A stretch of DNA of 64,000 bases, taken from Thiomicrorhabdus sp. zzn3 (GTDB taxonomy: Bacteria > Pseudomonadota > Gammaproteobacteria > Thiomicrospirales > Thiomicrospiraceae). This document shows, one piece after another, positions 34,955 through 62,149 of the stretch. The position numbers were made by a program, and so were the translations under genes. The notes beneath the pieces are model-generated. The model had not been told where the DNA came from. It ran no database searches and saw only the letters and a program-made list of their open reading frames with translations. Numbering within the stretch: position 1 is the stretch's first letter; each line of letters opens with the position of its first letter. Location of the stretch: positions 62,808 to 126,807 of the forward strand of contig NZ_JARUQS010000002.1 in assembly GCF_029767755.1 (NCBI RefSeq), read 5' to 3'.

Positions 34955-35030
34955 GGCCTGATAGCTCAGTCGGTAGAGCAAGGGATTGAAAATCCCTGTG
35001 TCCCTGGTTCGATTCCAGGTCAGGCCACCA
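34955..35030 (+). tRNA. tRNA-Phe (GAA)
   Basis: 76 bases with encoded CCA. Acceptor stem GGCCTGA / TCAGGCC, D-loop AGCTCAGTCGGTAGAGC, anticodon stem-loop AGGGA-TTGAAAA-TCCCT with GAA, and GGTTCGATTCC in the T arm. The CAGGCCTG at its 5' edge is a product of the acceptor stem, probably by chance. Confidence 0.97.
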
Positions 35031-35036
35031 TATATT

Positions 35037-35120
<84 letters not shown>

Positions 35121-52263: not shown

Positions 52264-52338
52264 TGGCGCGGCCACCAGGACTCGAACCTGGAACTGCCCC
52301 TTAGGAGGGGGCCGTTATATCCCTTTAACTATAGCCGC
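52264..52338 (-). tRNA. tRNA-Arg (CCT)
   Basis: Read on the minus strand: GCGGCTA acceptor, D arm TAGTTAAAGGGATATAAC, anticodon stem-loop CCCC-CTCCTAA-GGGG with anticodon CCT, T arm GGTTCGAGTCC and encoded CCA. About 75 bases; closely follows the pattern of E. coli tRNA-Arg(CCU). Confidence 0.95.
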
Positions 52339-56531: not shown

Positions 56532-57056
56532 TTAAACGACGTTTTCATCGCTCAGCTTATCCAAAATGGTTTTGACCACGCGATGCACCGGTACCTGCTG
56601 GGTTTCAATCACCAGATCCGCCATTTCCAGATACCAGGGTTCGCGCTTGACCATCAGATCGCGCAATACTTTTTCCGGATTCGCCTGCTGTAACAGCGGA
56701 CGGTTACGATCGTGACGGGTGCGCTGAATCAATGCTTCCACCGGTGATTTCAAATAGACGACAAAGCCGCGACTGCGCAAATGCTTGCGGTTTTCTTCCC
56801 GTTCGACCACACCGCCGCCGGTGGCGAGAATAATCTGAGGTCGTTGCGACAATTCATCGATCACCGTCTCTTCACGGTCACGAAAACCGGATTCGCCTTC
56901 AATGTCGAAAATCATCGGAATCGTGGCACCGGTGCGCGCTTCAATCTCGTGGTCGCTGTCAACGAACTCATACTGCAGCCTTTCCGCTAAAGCGCGGCCT
57001 ACCGTCGATTTTCCCGCCCCCATTGGGCCGATTAAAAAAATACTTTCTTTATGCAT
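56532..57056 (-). CDS. aroK: Shikimate kinase AroK
   Basis: Phosphorylates shikimate with ATP. P-loop [15 protein letters not shown], shikimate-binding [11 protein letters not shown] and FRDREE, GGGVV ([12 protein letters not shown]) and the lid [11 protein letters not shown] are all in place. 174 residues. First gene of aroK-aroB. No pilQ upstream, though many gammaproteobacteria have one. Confidence 0.95.
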
Positions 57057-57259
57057 AGAGGCATTGTAATGGATTTAGGGGGGGAGCTCCATTCAAAGAT
57101 GCGTCTTACAAGCTAAAAACTTAACCCAAAAATCGCCTGTTTTCCTATTGTTAGAAACGATAGTAAGCATTACACTAACCAACAGAATTAAGTAGGATTA
57201 CTCAACCCGTTTGAGACCCTTAATTCCCCCTTCACCTTGGTTAAACGGGAGCCACAATT

Positions 57260-57970
57260 ATGCCGATTGTCGAAGCGCGTCAGATCAGCAAAACCTATCG
57301 CAGCGGCGACATCCATGTCGAAGCGATTCATCCCATTGATTTTTCCATCGACACCGGCGCCTTTGTCGCCTTTGTCGGCCCCTCCGGCAGCGGCAAAAGC
57401 ACCCTGCTGAATATGATCGGAGGCCTGGACAAACCCTCCGCCGGGCAACTTAAAGTGGACGGCATCGACATAGCGGCGTTGGACCGTAAACAGGCCGCGC
57501 AATTCCGTGGCGACACCATCGGCTTTATTTTTCAGGACTTCAATCTGATTCCGGTGCTGACCGTCGCGGAAAACATCGAATACCCGCTGCTGATGGTGCA
57601 AAACTGGTCCGTGCAGACACGTAAAGAACGCGTAAACACCTTGATGGAGGCGGTCGGCATCAGCGAACAGGCACACAAATTTCCCCACCAGCTCTCCGGT
57701 GGGCAGAAGCAACGCGTCGCGGTGGCGCGTGCCTTGGCTTCCAAAGCCAAATTGATTCTCGCCGACGAGCCCACCGCCAACCTGGATCACCAGACCGCTC
57801 TGCGCATCATCGATTTGATGAAACAGATGCGCGACGAGTTTGATACCACCTTTATCTTCTCCACCCACGATCCAAAAATCATGGATGCGGCGGAATGTCT
57901 TTATACACTCGAAGACGGCTGCTTGACGGCTCAACCCAACCCGGCTACCGCCAAGGAGGGCCAGTCATGA
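57260..57970 (+). CDS. ABC transporter ATP-binding protein (LolD/MacB type)
   Basis: 236-residue ATPase of the LolD/MacB/FtsE group, which acts with FtsX-fold permeases in mechanotransmission or lipoprotein extrusion rather than solute uptake. Walker [11 protein letters not shown]-loop [12 protein letters not shown], signature [15 protein letters not shown], Walker [14 protein letters not shown]-loop [10 protein letters not shown]. Its stop overlaps the start of the permease (ATGA). First of four genes that look like one operon; the other three are the permease, a LolA-like carrier and an outer-membrane barrel. Confidence 0.92.
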
Positions 57971-59220
57971 AAATCCTGCGTATTGCCGCACGCAATCTGC
58001 TGCGCTATCGCCGCCGCACCCTGCTGACCACGCTGCTGATTACCCTCGGCGTAATGGCCATGCTGCTGTTTGTCAGCACCTCCGGTTCCTTCAAGGCGAT
58101 GATGGTCGGGCAGATCACCGATTCGATGATGGGCCATCTGCAAATCCACAAAAAAGGTTATGTCTCCTCGATCGACAGCCTGCCGCTGACGATGAATATG
58201 AAACCGAAAATGGTGGAAAAAGCCGCAGAACAGCTTGCGCAGATGCCGCAGGTGGAGGCTTGGTCAGAACGCGTCAAATTCGGCGCCATGTTCAGCAACT
58301 TTGCCGAAACCACCAGCATCCGGGTCAACGGCGTCGATCCGCAGCGCGAAATCCAGGCCTGTCCGGAACTGCCGAATCGATTGTTGAGCCAACTCGATTC
58401 CAAGGCCGGCGCCCCGTTTTTAGAGCGCGGCCAATTGATCATTCCCGAACTGATCGCCAAAGGCTTGAAGGTCAACGTCGGTGACCCGGTGGTACTGGTC
58501 GCTACCAACCGCGACGGTTCGGTCAACGGTATTAACTTTGTGGTCAGTGGCATTCTCGAAGGCCTCTCCGGCCCAGGCGGACGCGACGGTTACCTGCATA
58601 TTGACGACGCCCGCGAACTGCTGCGCCTGGAAGACAACGAAATCAGTGAAATCGCCGTGCGTCTCAAATCGCCGGAACAACAGCCGGTCGCCATGCAAAC
58701 CTTGCAAAAAACCTTGGGCAGCCTGACCAACCAGCAGGGCAAACCGGCGTTTGAAATCCACGGCTGGGACAAACTTTCGCCGTTTGCCAATATCGCCAAA
58801 ATGATCGACCTGATGACCCTGTTTATCAATGTCATGCTGGTGGCGATCGTGTTGATCAGCGTCATGAACGTCATGATTATGGCGGTCTACGAACGTGTGC
58901 GCGAGATCGGCACGCTGGCGGCCATGGGCACGCAGCCCAATACCATTCTCAAACTCTTTGTCACCGAGGGTCTGCTGCTCGGCCTGGTCGGTGCCCTGCT
59001 CGGCATTCTGTTGAGCATCGCCACTGTTCTGGTTCTGCAGCAGGCACAGATCAGTTTCGATTTCGGCCGCCAGAGCGGCTTGATTCTGCATCCCGAGCTG
59101 ACACTGTCCGACCTGATGTGGGCCTCGCTGATGGTGATCAGTGCCGCGGTACTGGCGAGTTTGCAACCGGCCTGGAAGGCGTCGCGCCTCAATCCGGTCG
59201 ACGCCTTGCGCCAGGTTTGA
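57967..59220 (+). CDS. FtsX/MacB-type ABC permease
   Basis: 417 residues from the ATG behind AAGGAGGG (an in-frame start further upstream lies inside the ATPase gene and is unlikely). One membrane helix at about 18-38, a periplasmic domain of about 250 residues, then three helices in the last third (IDLMTLFINVMLVAIVLISV, LLLGLVGALLGILLS, LMWASLMVISAAVLAS), the MacB/LolC/LolE topology. VYERVREIGTLAAMGTQPN is the coupling-helix signature. One permease gene means a homodimer, unlike LolCE. The TGA stop starts a palindrome copy (59218-59233). Confidence 0.92.
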   Translation: MKILRIAARNLLRYRRRTLLTTLLITLGVMAMLLFVSTSGSFKAMMVGQITDSMMGHLQIHKKGYVSSIDSLPLTMNMKPKMVEKAAEQLAQMPQVEAWSERVKFGAMFSNFAETTSIRVNGVDPQREIQACPELPNRLLSQLDSKAGAPFLERGQLIIPELIAKGLKVNVGDPVVLVATNRDGSVNGINFVVSGILEGLSGPGGRDGYLHIDDARELLRLEDNEISEIAVRLKSPEQQPVAMQTLQKTLGSLTNQQGKPAFEIHGWDKLSPFANIAKMIDLMTLFINVMLVAIVLISVMNVMIMAVYERVREIGTLAAMGTQPNTILKLFVTEGLLLGLVGALLGILLSIATVLVLQQAQISFDFGRQSGLILHPELTLSDLMWASLMVISAAVLASLQPAWKASRLNPVDALRQV

Positions 59221-59233
59221 ACAGGCCTGCTCA
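59218..59233. repeat. CAGGCCTG palindrome at permease stop codon
   Basis: TGAACAGGCCTGCTCA; its first three bases are the permease stop codon, as at trmB. It lies within the operon, before the LolA-like gene. Confidence 0.8.
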
Positions 59234-59267
59234 CTTTTAAGAACCGGCAACCGATCGAGGAAACCTT

Positions 59268-60014
59268 ATGAGACGCATCACGCTTTTGTTTTTAAGTTCA
59301 TTATTGACCTTTTCCGTCTGGGCTCAGCAAAGCCCGCTTCCCGATGCGGATGCCTTACTGACCCAGGTGGACCGCAATCTGCAGCCCGAATCCTACGAAA
59401 TGTACCGCAAACTGATCAATATCGAGCCGGATGGGGATCGTAAGGAGTTTGTGCTCTACACCGCCAAAAAAGGCAAAGAAAAGGTGGTGGCGCTGTTTCT
59501 CGATCCGGCCAGCGAACGCGGCCGCAGCAGTCTGCGCGTGGGCGACAATATGTGGCTGTACATTCCCAATGTCGGCAAACCGTTGCGGATCACCAGCCTG
59601 CAGTCGGTGGTCGGCGGGGTGTTCAATAACTCCGACATTCTGCAACTCGATTACAGCACCGAATACCAGGCCGAAACCATTGAAAAAGACAACAATCTGT
59701 ACAAACTGTCTCTCAAGGCCAAAAACCGCAGCGTCGCCTATGACCGCTTGATCATGTGGGTTGATCCCGAGCACACCATCCCGCTGAAAATCGAAGCCTA
59801 CTCCGCCAGCGGCATGCTGATCAAGACCCTCACTTACAGCAAAATCAAAGAGTTCGGCAACGGCTATGTGCGCCCGGCGATGCTGACCACCGACAGCCCG
59901 CTCTATAAAGGGTATCAGTCGGTGATGCTGTTTGACGGCATTCGTCCGCGCCAGTTTGCCGACGAAGTCTTTACCCTAGACTATATGAGCCGTATCGGCG
60001 AACTGCGCGACTAA
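59268..60014 (+). CDS. LolA-like outer membrane lipoprotein-sorting protein
   Basis: 248 residues with a signal peptide (MRRITLLFLSSLLTFSVWAQ). The mature part follows the COG2834 (LolA-related) pattern: MYRKLINIEPDGDRKEFVLYTAKKGKEKVVALFLDPASERGRSSL, MWLYIPNVGKPLRIT, RLIMWVDPEHTIPLKIEAYSASG, and a final short segment DEVFTLDYMSRI. The open beta-barrel fold of this group carries lipids or lipoproteins across the periplasm. Here it sits between an ABC permease and an outer-membrane barrel, as expected of a shuttle. ATG supported by GAGGAAA. Confidence 0.85.
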   Translation: MRRITLLFLSSLLTFSVWAQQSPLPDADALLTQVDRNLQPESYEMYRKLINIEPDGDRKEFVLYTAKKGKEKVVALFLDPASERGRSSLRVGDNMWLYIPNVGKPLRITSLQSVVGGVFNNSDILQLDYSTEYQAETIEKDNNLYKLSLKAKNRSVAYDRLIMWVDPEHTIPLKIEAYSASGMLIKTLTYSKIKEFGNGYVRPAMLTTDSPLYKGYQSVMLFDGIRPRQFADEVFTLDYMSRIGELRD

Positions 60015-60031
60015 CCGCGGGTTTGGAATCC

Positions 60032-61390
60032 ATGCTTTTTTTCGTATTCCGTAAACACCGCCATCATTCACGCCCTAAACCTTGGTTTTGGACAGGCCTG
60101 CTCGGTTTCTGCATGGCTTTGAATGCCGCAGCCGAGGAAAATTTCAGTTTTGATCTCAGCGCCTACCAGAAAAAGCCCTATGAACTGAACGGACGCATGG
60201 ATCTCATGGCCACTCAGATTCAGGTCAATGGCGGTTCGGCCTACAGCCATCTCGCCTTTAAAGGGGATTCCGCTGAAGACTTTATCCGTTATAACGGCGA
60301 ATTGGAACTGGAAGGACTCTATCGCTGGGAGCAAAGCTCAGTGCACGCCCGCACTCTGTCGCAATGGCAGGATGACGTCTTTAAGCAAACCACGGAACAT
60401 ACCTTGCAGGAAGCCTACTGGCATACGCAAGCCAGCGAGCGCTGGCAGTTCGAGCTCGGCAAGCGCGCGGTCAAATGGGGCAAAGGCTATGCGTGGAATC
60501 CGGTCGGTTTTGTCGAACGCCCCAAAAACCCCGATGAGCCGGAACAGAACCGCGAAGGCTTTGTCCTTGCCGGCACCACCTATACCCGCAGTTTTTCCGC
60601 TCCAAGCCAAGCGACTGAAAACTCAACAGGCCTGCTCAAAACCGTTTCCGCCTCCTTGTATGTACTGCCGGTCAACGAGAATCTGAACGAAGAACTCGCC
60701 CTCTCACAGCAGGATATTGACAATGCGCTGCAATGGACCGCAAAACTCTATGCGCTGGTCGGTCAGACCGACCTCGAATTTTATCTGCATCAGAGCAGTG
60801 ACGGCATCCGCGATACCGGTTTGAGTTTTGCCAGCAATCTGGCGAGTAACCTGGAAATTCACGGTGACTTCGCCTGGCTCGATCCACGCAACAGGCTGAC
60901 CATAGATGCGGATTCCGGCACGCTTGAAAGTGAACAAAGGGGGCGCTTTCAGGGTCTGATCGGCCTGCGTTATCTCAGCCCTAACGACACCACCTGGATT
61001 GCCGAATGGCTCTATAGCCCGCAAAATCCGAGTGAAACCGAACTGAACACCTTTTATCAATTCGCCAAAGCCGAACCGAATACGCCTGAATTCCAGCTTG
61101 CCCAACTGGCCAAGAGCGCCTACAGCCAAACTCCACCCGGAGAACACGCTCTCTATCTGCGCATCAGCCAGAAGGACTTCTGGGATCAGGTCTATCTCAA
61201 TGCCGCCTTGACCGGATTCTACAACCCGCTGGATCACAGCTATTCGCTGACGCCGGAACTGAGCTATAGCGGCTATAAAAATCTCGAGCTGCGCCTGCGT
61301 AGCAGCTGGTTGCAAGGGGCGCAGAACTCGGAATGGGGTGAAAAACTCAGTGGCTTCAAAACCGAGTTGCGCGCACGCCTGTTTTTCTGA
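60032..61390 (+). CDS. Outer-membrane beta-barrel protein of ABC/LolA-like operon
   Basis: 452 residues from the ATG at 60032. Signal peptide region KPWFWTGLLGFCMALNAAAEE with cleavage near AAA. The rest is alternating beta-strand with many aromatic residues and a final Phe (RARLFF), typical of outer-membrane barrels. QFELGKRAVKWGKGYAWNPVGF resembles the conserved segment of DUF1302-type barrels. No family certain. Two copies of the dispersed palindrome lie inside the coding frame (60091-60104 in the signal peptide, 60624-60639 in the barrel). It begins 17 bases after the LolA-like stop. Probably the outer-membrane partner of the transporter. Confidence 0.82.
   Translation: MLFFVFRKHRHHSRPKPWFWTGLLGFCMALNAAAEENFSFDLSAYQKKPYELNGRMDLMATQIQVNGGSAYSHLAFKGDSAEDFIRYNGELELEGLYRWEQSSVHARTLSQWQDDVFKQTTEHTLQEAYWHTQASERWQFELGKRAVKWGKGYAWNPVGFVERPKNPDEPEQNREGFVLAGTTYTRSFSAPSQATENSTGLLKTVSASLYVLPVNENLNEELALSQQDIDNALQWTAKLYALVGQTDLEFYLHQSSDGIRDTGLSFASNLASNLEIHGDFAWLDPRNRLTIDADSGTLESEQRGRFQGLIGLRYLSPNDTTWIAEWLYSPQNPSETELNTFYQFAKAEPNTPEFQLAQLAKSAYSQTPPGEHALYLRISQKDFWDQVYLNAALTGFYNPLDHSYSLTPELSYSGYKNLELRLRSSWLQGAQNSEWGEKLSGFKTELRARLFF
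60621..60650. repeat. Extended palindrome copy inside coding sequence
   Basis: ACTCAACAGGCCTGCTCAAA (60621-60640) followed by ACCGTTTCCG. The same flanks (AAACT/ACTCA left, ACCGTTTC right) surround intergenic copies at 12839 and 47831, so a whole repeat unit has been kept in frame, encoding ENSTGLLKTVS. Confidence 0.65.
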
Positions 61391-61531
61391 TAAACGGCAA
61401 TCCATTCTCAGCTGTTTTTAACAGAGTCCGGCGAAATTCCATCTGCCCCGATTTCTCTGTTAAAATAGCCGACTACGAACGAAATTGTGCGCAAAATCAT
61501 TGGCGCCGTGCCAGTTTGAATTGGAGACTTT

Positions 61532-62149
61532 ATGAGCGGATCGCTTTACATTATTTCAGCCCCTTCCGGTGCAGGCAAAACCTCGCTGGTAAGTAAACTC
61601 ATAGAGATGGACAGTCATATTACCGTCTCCATCTCCTCCACCACCCGTCCAATGCGCCCCGGTGAGGAAAACGGCGTCAACTACCACTTTTTGACGGTTG
61701 ATGAGTTCCAGGAAAAAATCAAACAGGATGATTTTCTGGAACACGCCCAAGTGTTTGACAACTTTTACGGTACCTCCAAAAGTAGCGTCGAAGCCCAGTT
61801 GAACGCGGGTAAAGACGTGATTCTGGAAATTGACTGGCAGGGCGCACAACAGGTACGTAAACTGATCCCGGAAGCCATTTCAATTTTTATTCTGCCGCCT
61901 TCGCTGGACGAATTGCAGCGCCGCCTGAATGGCCGCGGCACCGACAGCGAAGAGGTGATTGCTCGCCGCATGCGGGATGCCGTCAATGAGATGTCTCACT
62001 ACGACGAGTTTGACTATATCGTCATCAATAACCATTTTGATACCGCACTGAAACAGTTGCACAGCATTTTCAGCGCAGGCCGTCTGACCAAGGCCAAACA
62101 GATCGCTCAGCATAAAAACCTGATTGATGGCCTGATTATGAACCACTAA
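61532..62149 (+). CDS. gmk: Guanylate kinase
   Basis: Phosphorylates GMP to GDP. P-loop [15 protein letters not shown]-binding [22 protein letters not shown] and [13 protein letters not shown], then [13 protein letters not shown] and [21 protein letters not shown]. 205 residues. Upstream about 140 bases of intergenic DNA should hold its promoter. Usually near rpoZ or yicC; here it precedes the Kdo-modifying pair instead. Confidence 0.96.

What the first reader, a model, noticed from the sequence alone, without database searches (positions are those of the whole stretch)
57260..61390. Operon coding an ABC ATPase, single MacB/Lol-type permease, LolA-like carrier and outer-membrane barrel
The first two overlap, and the gaps to the third and fourth are 47 and 17 bases. 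Together they give an inner-membrane extractor, a periplasmic shuttle and an outer-membrane acceptor: a full trans-envelope route for a lipid or lipoprotein. It differs from canonical LolABCDE in having a single permease and a barrel instead of the LolB lipoprotein.
Basis: partly seen in the sequence, partly recalled or inferred. Interest (0 to 1): 0.62.

Follow-up and report, generated by a model that had tools for sequence, protein, structure and literature searches.

The report
LolA-type lipid export cassette
Four neighbouring genes, kept together in bacteria of several phyla, look like a complete ATP-driven route that pulls a greasy molecule out of the inner membrane and hands it through the periplasm to a dedicated outer-membrane pore; what it carries is not known.

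Summary
Window 57260-61390 encodes an ABC ATPase, one LolC/E-fold permease (start 57967), a PF17131 LolA-like protein and an outer-membrane beta-barrel that matches no Pfam or NCBIfam family. The order is conserved: in 8 of 8 family genomes that hold the barrel (8 of 62 searched) and in 59 of 61 loci with enough flank among 80 named relatives. The barrel model (pLDDT 90.5) is OprD/AlgE-like with about 18 strands; the permease model is closest to LolE (Z 29.3). The cassette is gained and lost as a unit: at 22 of 29 close gmk loci in the genus the aroK-gmk gap is empty. The genome has its own LolF, LolD-like ATPase and LolA elsewhere, so this is a parallel system. 'Single permease' is not distinctive, since that Lol set also has one. 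Best reading: export of a hydrophobic non-protein ligand. Lipoproteins are less likely; no subunit contact was tested and the substrate is unknown. Closest published systems: Borrelia BBJ23-29 and AmeABCD. A new variant of a known kind.

The parts
57260..57970 (+). ABC ATPase (LolD/MacB/DevA-like nucleotide-binding subunit)
   Evidence: PF00005 128.1 bits; best NCBIfam LolD 214.3 bits, below its cut-off of 307.75
57967..59220 (+). Type VII (MacB/LolC/E-fold) permease, one copy, presumably a homodimer
   Evidence: MacB_PCD + FtsX; lolCE model 131.4 bits, below cut-off 362.45; model m2ac2ecc752d5 pLDDT 85.2, LolCDE chain E Z 29.3
58495..58530 (+). Permease residues 177-188 (LVATNRDGSVNG): strongly conserved hairpin at the place of the LolC/LolF Hook
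   Evidence: A179, N181, G184, V186, N187 invariant in 52 sequences; strands 174-180 and 186-197 in the model
59268..60014 (+). PF17131 LolA-like periplasmic carrier with signal peptide (signal by eye)
   Evidence: 149.7 bits; related to solved structure 3buu, E 1.2e-34 with profile A7
60032..61390 (+). Outer-membrane beta-barrel, about 18 strands, N-terminal signal helix
   Evidence: AlphaFold2 pLDDT 90.5, pTM 0.83; OprD/Occ entries Z 21.7-23.9, AlgE entries Z 20.7-22.0; no Pfam/NCBIfam family
60467..60559 (+). Barrel residues 146-176 (AVKWGKGYAWNPVGFVERPKNP...NREG): long loop between strands 5 and 6, the best conserved long segment
   Evidence: mean conservation 0.79 over 69 sequences; position from the model
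57057..57259 (.). Gap between aroK and the cassette; with 61391-61531 (to gmk) it marks the place that is empty in relatives
   Evidence: in 22 of 29 close gmk loci of the genus aroK lies 136-302 bases from gmk with no cassette

Best explanation
A dedicated trans-envelope exporter for a hydrophobic, non-protein ligand. [quoted passage not shown] The PF17131 protein docks on the permease's periplasmic domain (probably through the conserved 177-188 hairpin at the Hook position), takes the ligand into its hydrophobic half-barrel, and carries it to the periplasmic face of the barrel. The OprD/AlgE-like barrel releases it to the outer leaflet or the medium. Shown: genes, predicted folds, operon layout, conserved order, gain and loss as a unit, a separate Lol set. 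Inferred: homodimer, direction, docking, carrier-to-barrel hand-over, nature of the ligand.
For: Same four genes in order in 8 of 8 family genomes with the barrel; all four in 59 of 61 named loci with room. Starts overlap the gene before in LolA/barrel 45 of 79 and ATPase/permease 55 of 66 loci (script-chosen starts). Permease fold LolCDE chain E Z 29.3, MacB Z 20.7; carrier related to 3buu; barrel porin-like. LolF, LolD-like ORF and LolA elsewhere in the genome. Of six more distant loci with the same order, two lie beside lipid or polyketide-type enzymes (L185 SDRs and a flavin oxidase; L187 polyketide dehydratase + phosphopantetheinyl transferase, and a Male-sterility/thioester-reductase-like protein further on). 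Analogues: AmeABCD apolar export (PMC6394551, passages), aryl polyene LolA-like + RND (PMC8253772, passages), Borrelia BBJ23-29 (PMC13078400, abstract and sections 8 and 12).
Against: No contact between the subunits was tested. In the close family no biosynthetic gene recurs beside the cassette (ORF families in 4 or more loci), so the ligand is guessed from two distant relatives and from analogues; L189-L191 show no such enzymes in the stretches seen, and L188 was not examined. OprD-like barrels usually pass polar solutes and AlgE exports a polysaccharide (recalled). Two of 61 loci lack part of the set (L085 no barrel, L119 no ATPase or permease).
Confidence: 0.6

Rival explanations
1. A second, specialised lipoprotein route: the permease extracts particular lipoproteins, the PF17131 protein carries them, and the barrel inserts or surface-exposes them.
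For: Permease and ATPase are nearest to LolCE/LolD models and to LolE structures; the Borrelia authors name lipoproteins as possible cargo of their cluster.
Against: LolF, a LolD-like ORF and LolA are present elsewhere. Permease and ATPase are far below the curated Lol cut-offs. None of the recurrent neighbours looked like a lipoprotein (by eye, no lipobox search was run). The barrel model is porin-like.
Confidence: 0.17
2. A detoxification pump for foreign apolar compounds (solvents, hydrocarbons), as AmeABCD is for monoterpenes, rather than an exporter of a self-made lipid.
For: AmeABCD has a DUF1302 barrel and a LolA-superfamily DUF1329 protein and raises monoterpene tolerance (PMC6394551, passages). 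In four loci of the genus (L017, L018, L019, L051) the cassette lies near SMR-like and membrane-fusion-like ORFs (names by eye).
Against: High conservation of the carrier across phyla (mean column identity 72%) suggests one fixed ligand. AmeABCD uses an RND pump, not an ABC.
Confidence: 0.15
3. A retrograde or uptake route (outer membrane to inner membrane), like Mla.
For: The barrel resembles uptake porins of the OprD family.
Against: Type VII transporters are associated with export (PMC13078400 section 8; fold). The four cassette proteins show no MCE-domain or MlaA family.
Confidence: 0.05
4. The barrel is an independent porin that merely shares the operon.
For: Its fold is a general porin fold; one carrier locus, L085, has no barrel.
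Against: In the family it was not found without the other three (8 of 8); 79 of 80 carrier loci hold it; distances between barrel, permease and carrier correlate at r 0.76-0.82 over 48 sequences, without a species-tree control.
Confidence: 0.03

Closest known systems
Borrelia BBJ23-BBJ29 cluster (PMC13078400)
   Same: ABC ATPase, single LolE-like permease, LolA-like carrier and outer-membrane barrel in one cluster; [quoted passage not shown] Distant relatives L189-L191 also have a small ORF just before the ATPase that looks TPR-like by eye (no Pfam hit for L189; L185's is 26.4 bits against a cut-off of 35), as Borrelia has two TPR proteins.
   Different: The Borrelia barrel is an Omp85-family domain; here the model is OprD/AlgE-like. 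Two TPR genes there, none in the window cassette. Sequence kinship of the two clusters was not tested.
AmeABCD of Castellaniella defragrans (PMC6394551)
   Same: LolA-superfamily periplasmic protein and outer-membrane barrel (DUF1302) encoded with an inner-membrane pump; apolar ligand export.
   Different: RND (HAE3) pump instead of ABC; extra periplasmic AmeC; our barrel does not match DUF1302 in Pfam.
Canonical Lol (LolCDE or LolDF, LolA, LolB)
   Same: Permease fold, ATPase and LolA-fold carrier logic.
   Different: Permease and ATPase are below the curated Lol cut-offs, the carrier falls in PF17131 instead of PF03548, a barrel is present, and the same genome has a Lol set apart.
PF17131 loci with a DUF1302-type barrel (label mine)
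   Same: PF17131-like carrier, ABC ATPase, MacB-type permeases and a barrel; 7 of 19 distant loci hit a DUF1302 profile made here from 5 sequences.
   Different: Two permeases in 6 of those 7, DUF1302 barrel, carrier on the opposite strand in L177. Whether the locus of NE2245 (3buu) is of this type was not examined.

Membership tests
Canonical Lol system | Permease over the NCBIfam lolCE cut-off (362.45 bits) | tested here: not met
   131.4 bits; the genome's own permease at C1:1115492 scores 508.8
Canonical Lol system | ATPase over the LolD cut-off (307.75 bits) | tested here: not met
   214.3 bits
Canonical Lol system | Carrier in Pfam LolA PF03548 | tested here: not met
   no PF03548 hit up to E 1, PF17131 instead; PF03548 rings only at C1:661493 in the genome
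Canonical Lol system | LolC/LolE fold of the permease | tested here: met
   LolCDE chain E Z 29.3, rmsd 5.0, 370 aligned
Canonical Lol system | Hook that recruits LolA | tested here: inconclusive
   A hairpin sits there and is strongly conserved, but is about 5 residues shorter than in the genome's LolF (by eye) and in LolE
Canonical Lol system | Lipoprotein cargo | not testable with these tools
   needs experiment
Pfam LolA_like PF17131 | Over gathering score 30 | tested here: met
   149.7 bits
MacAB-TolC pump | ATPase and permease fused, with MacA adaptor and TolC alongside | tested here: not met
   separate genes, no adaptor or TolC among the four cassette proteins
DUF1302 (PF06980) barrels | Match to PF06980 | tested here: not met
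   no PF06980 hit up to E 1; PF06980 finds nothing in this genome at E 0.001
DUF1302 (PF06980) barrels | Distant homology by profile comparison | tested here: inconclusive
   hhalign probability 13.5%, E 0.0021 for one comparison with 5 DUF1302 sequences
Omp85 barrels (as BBJ25) | 16-strand Omp85 fold | tested here: inconclusive
   best matches are OprD/Occ, chitoporin, AlgE; Omp85 not among the 50 listed, which excludes nothing
OprD/AlgE-like barrels | Barrel fold | tested here: met
   OpdG Z 23.9, rmsd 3.2, 308 aligned; AlgE Z 20.7-22.0; sequence identity about 10%, so kinship is not shown

The most novel reading that the evidence does not exclude
[quoted passage not shown] Hints: many of the named carriers belong to sulfur-cycling lineages, such as Thiomicrorhabdus, Sedimenticola, tubeworm symbionts, Desulfocapsa and Desulfofustis (names, physiology recalled; many other records are unnamed bins); a TsoY/SLAC1-type membrane protein sits inside 5 of 80 loci and a NifX-like ORF with a signal-like start inside 19 of 80. 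The only count made is weak: SoxB over cut-off in 5 of 6 tight-system genomes against 148 of 369 (p 0.04, no correction for kinship).
Probability: 0.06. Interest if true: 0.85.

Novelty: new variant of a known kind. Interest (0 to 1): 0.5.

Why it matters
How bacteria move greasy molecules across the periplasm to the cell surface is known for only a few systems. This is a compact route with its own predicted outer-membrane exit, gained and lost as a unit, strongly conserved across phyla, and with a barrel family that Pfam and NCBIfam do not model. Because a separate Lol set is present, the cassette should be removable without touching general lipoprotein sorting (inference), which makes mechanism and ligand directly testable. 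It also warns against taking the label 'outer membrane lipoprotein-sorting protein' of PF17131 as a function.

Tried and rejected
Rejected: 'a barrel instead of LolB' as something special to this operon, because PF03550 finds no LolB over cut-off in any of 62 family genomes, with or without the cassette (six genomes gave sub-threshold hits up to E 10). The barrel has no match in the plasmid collection (only the barrel was searched). No relative of the carrier in viral contigs. Barrel against solved structures by sequence: nothing significant. Sulfur link by SoxB: weak. Papers on 'TsoY': none on the protein among the 20 listed of 1,239. Searches for a prior description (one search listed 20 of 194, the others all they found; listings seen, and abstracts, passages or sections only where cited) brought up the Borrelia cluster and AmeABCD, not this cassette; only open-licence PMC papers are held. 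The promoter/terminator scan gave nothing beyond its shuffles. Omp85 and FadL folds were not among the 50 listed matches, which excludes nothing. Complex prediction of carrier with permease or barrel was not possible: the folding tool takes single chains, and both jobs went to monomers.

Rows dropped: of 80 named loci, barrel alignment A4 uses 68 plus the window, permease A6 51 plus the window, carrier A7 53 plus the window, the tree 47 plus the window; truncated, masked, frameshifted or near-duplicate ones were left out. Two of the 80 (L051, L066) are contigs of family genomes G029 and G057, so the two counts are not fully independent. Start codons in those loci were picked by script. Of 20 distant stretches one short contig (L169) was not analysed; the listing of their ORFs was cut, so L188 was not read. 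The neighbour clustering left out the window, L016, L020, L021 and ORFs under 100 aa.
Full report
What is there. Four genes on the + strand, between aroK (56532-57056, - strand) and gmk (61532-62149; names of the two by eye): ABC ATPase 57260-57970, permease 57967-59220, LolA-like 59268-60014, barrel 60032-61390. Pfam gives ABC_tran, MacB_PCD + FtsX, and LolA_like PF17131; the fourth protein has no family over cut-off in Pfam or NCBIfam.

Genome. The genome (G000, 2.37 Mb) shares its genus group with G029, whose 184,723-base contig has the length of the Thiomicrorhabdus marina contig of L051, so the window is most likely Thiomicrorhabdus (inference). It has a Lol set elsewhere: one permease over the lolCE cut-off (508.8 bits; of 5 matches in the genome the only one over it), directly before a 228-aa ORF that looks like LolD (by eye), and LolA PF03548 between FtsK-like and RarA-like ORFs (by eye). 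With one permease this is a LolF arrangement. LolB PF03550 is over cut-off in 0 of 62 family genomes. So the operon is a second, parallel system, and neither the single permease nor the missing LolB distinguishes it.

Conservation. In the family the barrel occurs in 8 of 62 genomes. A carrier match at E 0.001 occurs in 22 of 62, but a close one (67-100% identity) only in the same 8; the rest are at 22-29%. All 8 have the four genes in the same order (window plus L015-L021). A pattern scan of the GTDB genome collection with the carrier alignment found 263 relatives, of which the best 80 were kept. By record title these are Gammaproteobacteria, Desulfobacterota and a few others (Acidobacteriota, Krumholzibacteriia, Fermentibacteria, Electryonea); many are metagenome bins and titles may be wrong. 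A barrel matching profile A1 lies downstream in 79 of 80, cut short by a contig end in some. Of 61 loci with room on both sides (2,300 bases before and 1,500 after the carrier) 59 have all four; the exceptions are L085 (no barrel) and L119 (no ATPase or permease; its carrier frame begins in what looks like an ATPase remnant). In a class-wide sample 44 of 369 genomes have a carrier-like match at E 1e-12; 6, the window's own among them, score above 400 bits and the next scores 131.6, so the close family is sharply bounded.

Gain and loss. Matches to the flanking aroB, aroK, gmk and DegT-like genes are found beside the cassette in the window, L015 and L016, and not in the 9.5-12 kb held of L017-L021. 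Of 32 genomes of the genus group 29 gave a close gmk with a locus: in 22 aroK lies 136-302 bases from gmk with no cassette, 3 (the window's, G028, G032) hold the cassette there, 1 has aroK further off and 3 showed no aroK in the stretch held. Four genomes that carry the cassette elsewhere (G027, G029, G043, G051) are among the 22. In a permease + carrier tree, Thiomicrospira UBA5634 (L066) groups with Sedimenticola (L063, 100/100) and not with Thiomicrorhabdus marina and the window (100/99). The set therefore comes and goes as a unit; transfer is likely, not proven.

Structures. Barrel: 69-sequence model, pLDDT 90.5, pTM 0.83, with 20 strand segments that I merge into 18 transmembrane strands by topology (the merging is mine). 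Best solved matches: OprD/Occ entries (Z 21.7-23.9), chitoporin (22.5), AlgE (20.7-22.0), Wzi (19.9), LamB and maltoporin (18.8-19.6); Foldseek ranks AlgE first. The most conserved long segment, residues 146-176 (mean 0.79), is a loop between strands 5 and 6 that might enter the lumen (inference). Permease: 52-sequence model, pLDDT 85.2, pTM 0.73; LolCDE chain E Z 29.3, LolC 27.6, MacB 20.7. At the position of the LolC Hook there is a short hairpin, LVATNRDGSVNG, with A179, N181, G184, V186 and N187 invariant in 52 sequences. The genome's LolF has a longer, proline-rich stretch there (by eye). The importance of the Hook is from PMC10865981 (passages). Carrier: related to 3buu (E 1.2e-34), 3bk5, 4z48 and 9tp6. 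Mean column identity is 72% for 54 carriers, 62% for 52 permeases and 51% for 69 barrels.

Extra genes. Five of 80 loci carry a TsoY-family (SLAC1-like) membrane protein between carrier and barrel (two of five tested by profile). Nineteen of 80 carry a small ORF with a signal-like start (by eye) and NifX-like similarity before the carrier (two of 19 tested by Pfam, PF02579). Their roles are unknown. No other neighbour family recurred in a way that names a ligand.

Wider family. Of 19 more distant class loci examined, six (L185, L187-L191) have the same order ATPase, permease, carrier, barrel, the barrels matching profile A4 at E 2e-17 to 3e-4. L189-L191 continue with a histidine kinase and a LytTR regulator (L189 by Pfam; L190, L191 by eye). 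L185 lies beside short-chain dehydrogenases and a flavin oxidase; L187 beside a polyketide dehydratase/phosphopantetheinyl transferase protein, with a Male-sterility (thioester-reductase-like) protein further on. Seven of 19 have instead a barrel that hits a DUF1302 profile made here from five sequences, six of the seven with two permeases; in L177 the carrier is on the opposite strand. The other six showed neither barrel. The DUF1302 link of our barrel is only suggestive (hhalign 13.5%, E 0.0021).

Reading. Fold and order indicate an outward route of the LolDF/MacB type ending in its own barrel. A non-protein ligand is favoured by the separate Lol set, the low Lol scores, the absence of an evident lipoprotein among recurrent neighbours (by eye), the lipid or polyketide-type enzymes beside two of six distant relatives, and analogues: AmeABCD, aryl polyene genes with LolA-like and RND proteins, Borrelia BBJ23-29. 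Against: no contact was tested, no neighbour in the close family names the ligand, four of the six distant relatives gave no biosynthetic hint (one of them unread), and OprD-like barrels mostly pass polar solutes (recalled). A sulfur link was tested once and is weak: SoxB over cut-off in 5 of 6 tight-system genomes and 148 of 369 overall, hypergeometric p 0.04, uncorrected for kinship; G395, 75% complete, is the miss.

Novelty. The parts are known kinds and similar assemblies are in print; this ABC + PF17131 + OprD/AlgE-like barrel cassette was not found described in the searches listed under Tried and rejected. I rate it a new variant of a known kind, interest 0.5.

Noticed in passing
L098:6586-6999, L078, L068 and 16 other loci: NifX-like (PF02579 in the two tested) ORF with a signal-like start before the carrier in 19 of 80 loci.
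   Followed up: partly
L072, L082, L092, L096, L121: TsoY/SLAC1-type membrane protein inserted between carrier and barrel.
   Followed up: partly
L135:373-2619: An ORF that the carrier query hits weakly (E 1.9e-4) directly before a DUF1302 barrel, in family genome G012, which lacks the cassette.
   Followed up: partly
L177: DUF1302-type locus with an extra N-terminal part on the barrel, two permeases and the carrier on the opposite strand; neighbours look like an acyltransferase, a TauD-type and an AMP-ligase ORF (names by eye).
   Followed up: no
L189, L190, L191: Distant version of the four-gene order followed by a LytS-type kinase and a LytTR regulator and preceded by a small ORF that looks TPR-like by eye.
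   Followed up: partly
L110:2600-2960: Carrier frame preceded in frame by what looks like a remnant of the NifX-like gene.
   Followed up: no
window 34955-35120 and 52264-52338: tRNA-Phe, tRNA-Leu and tRNA-Arg genes.
   Followed up: no
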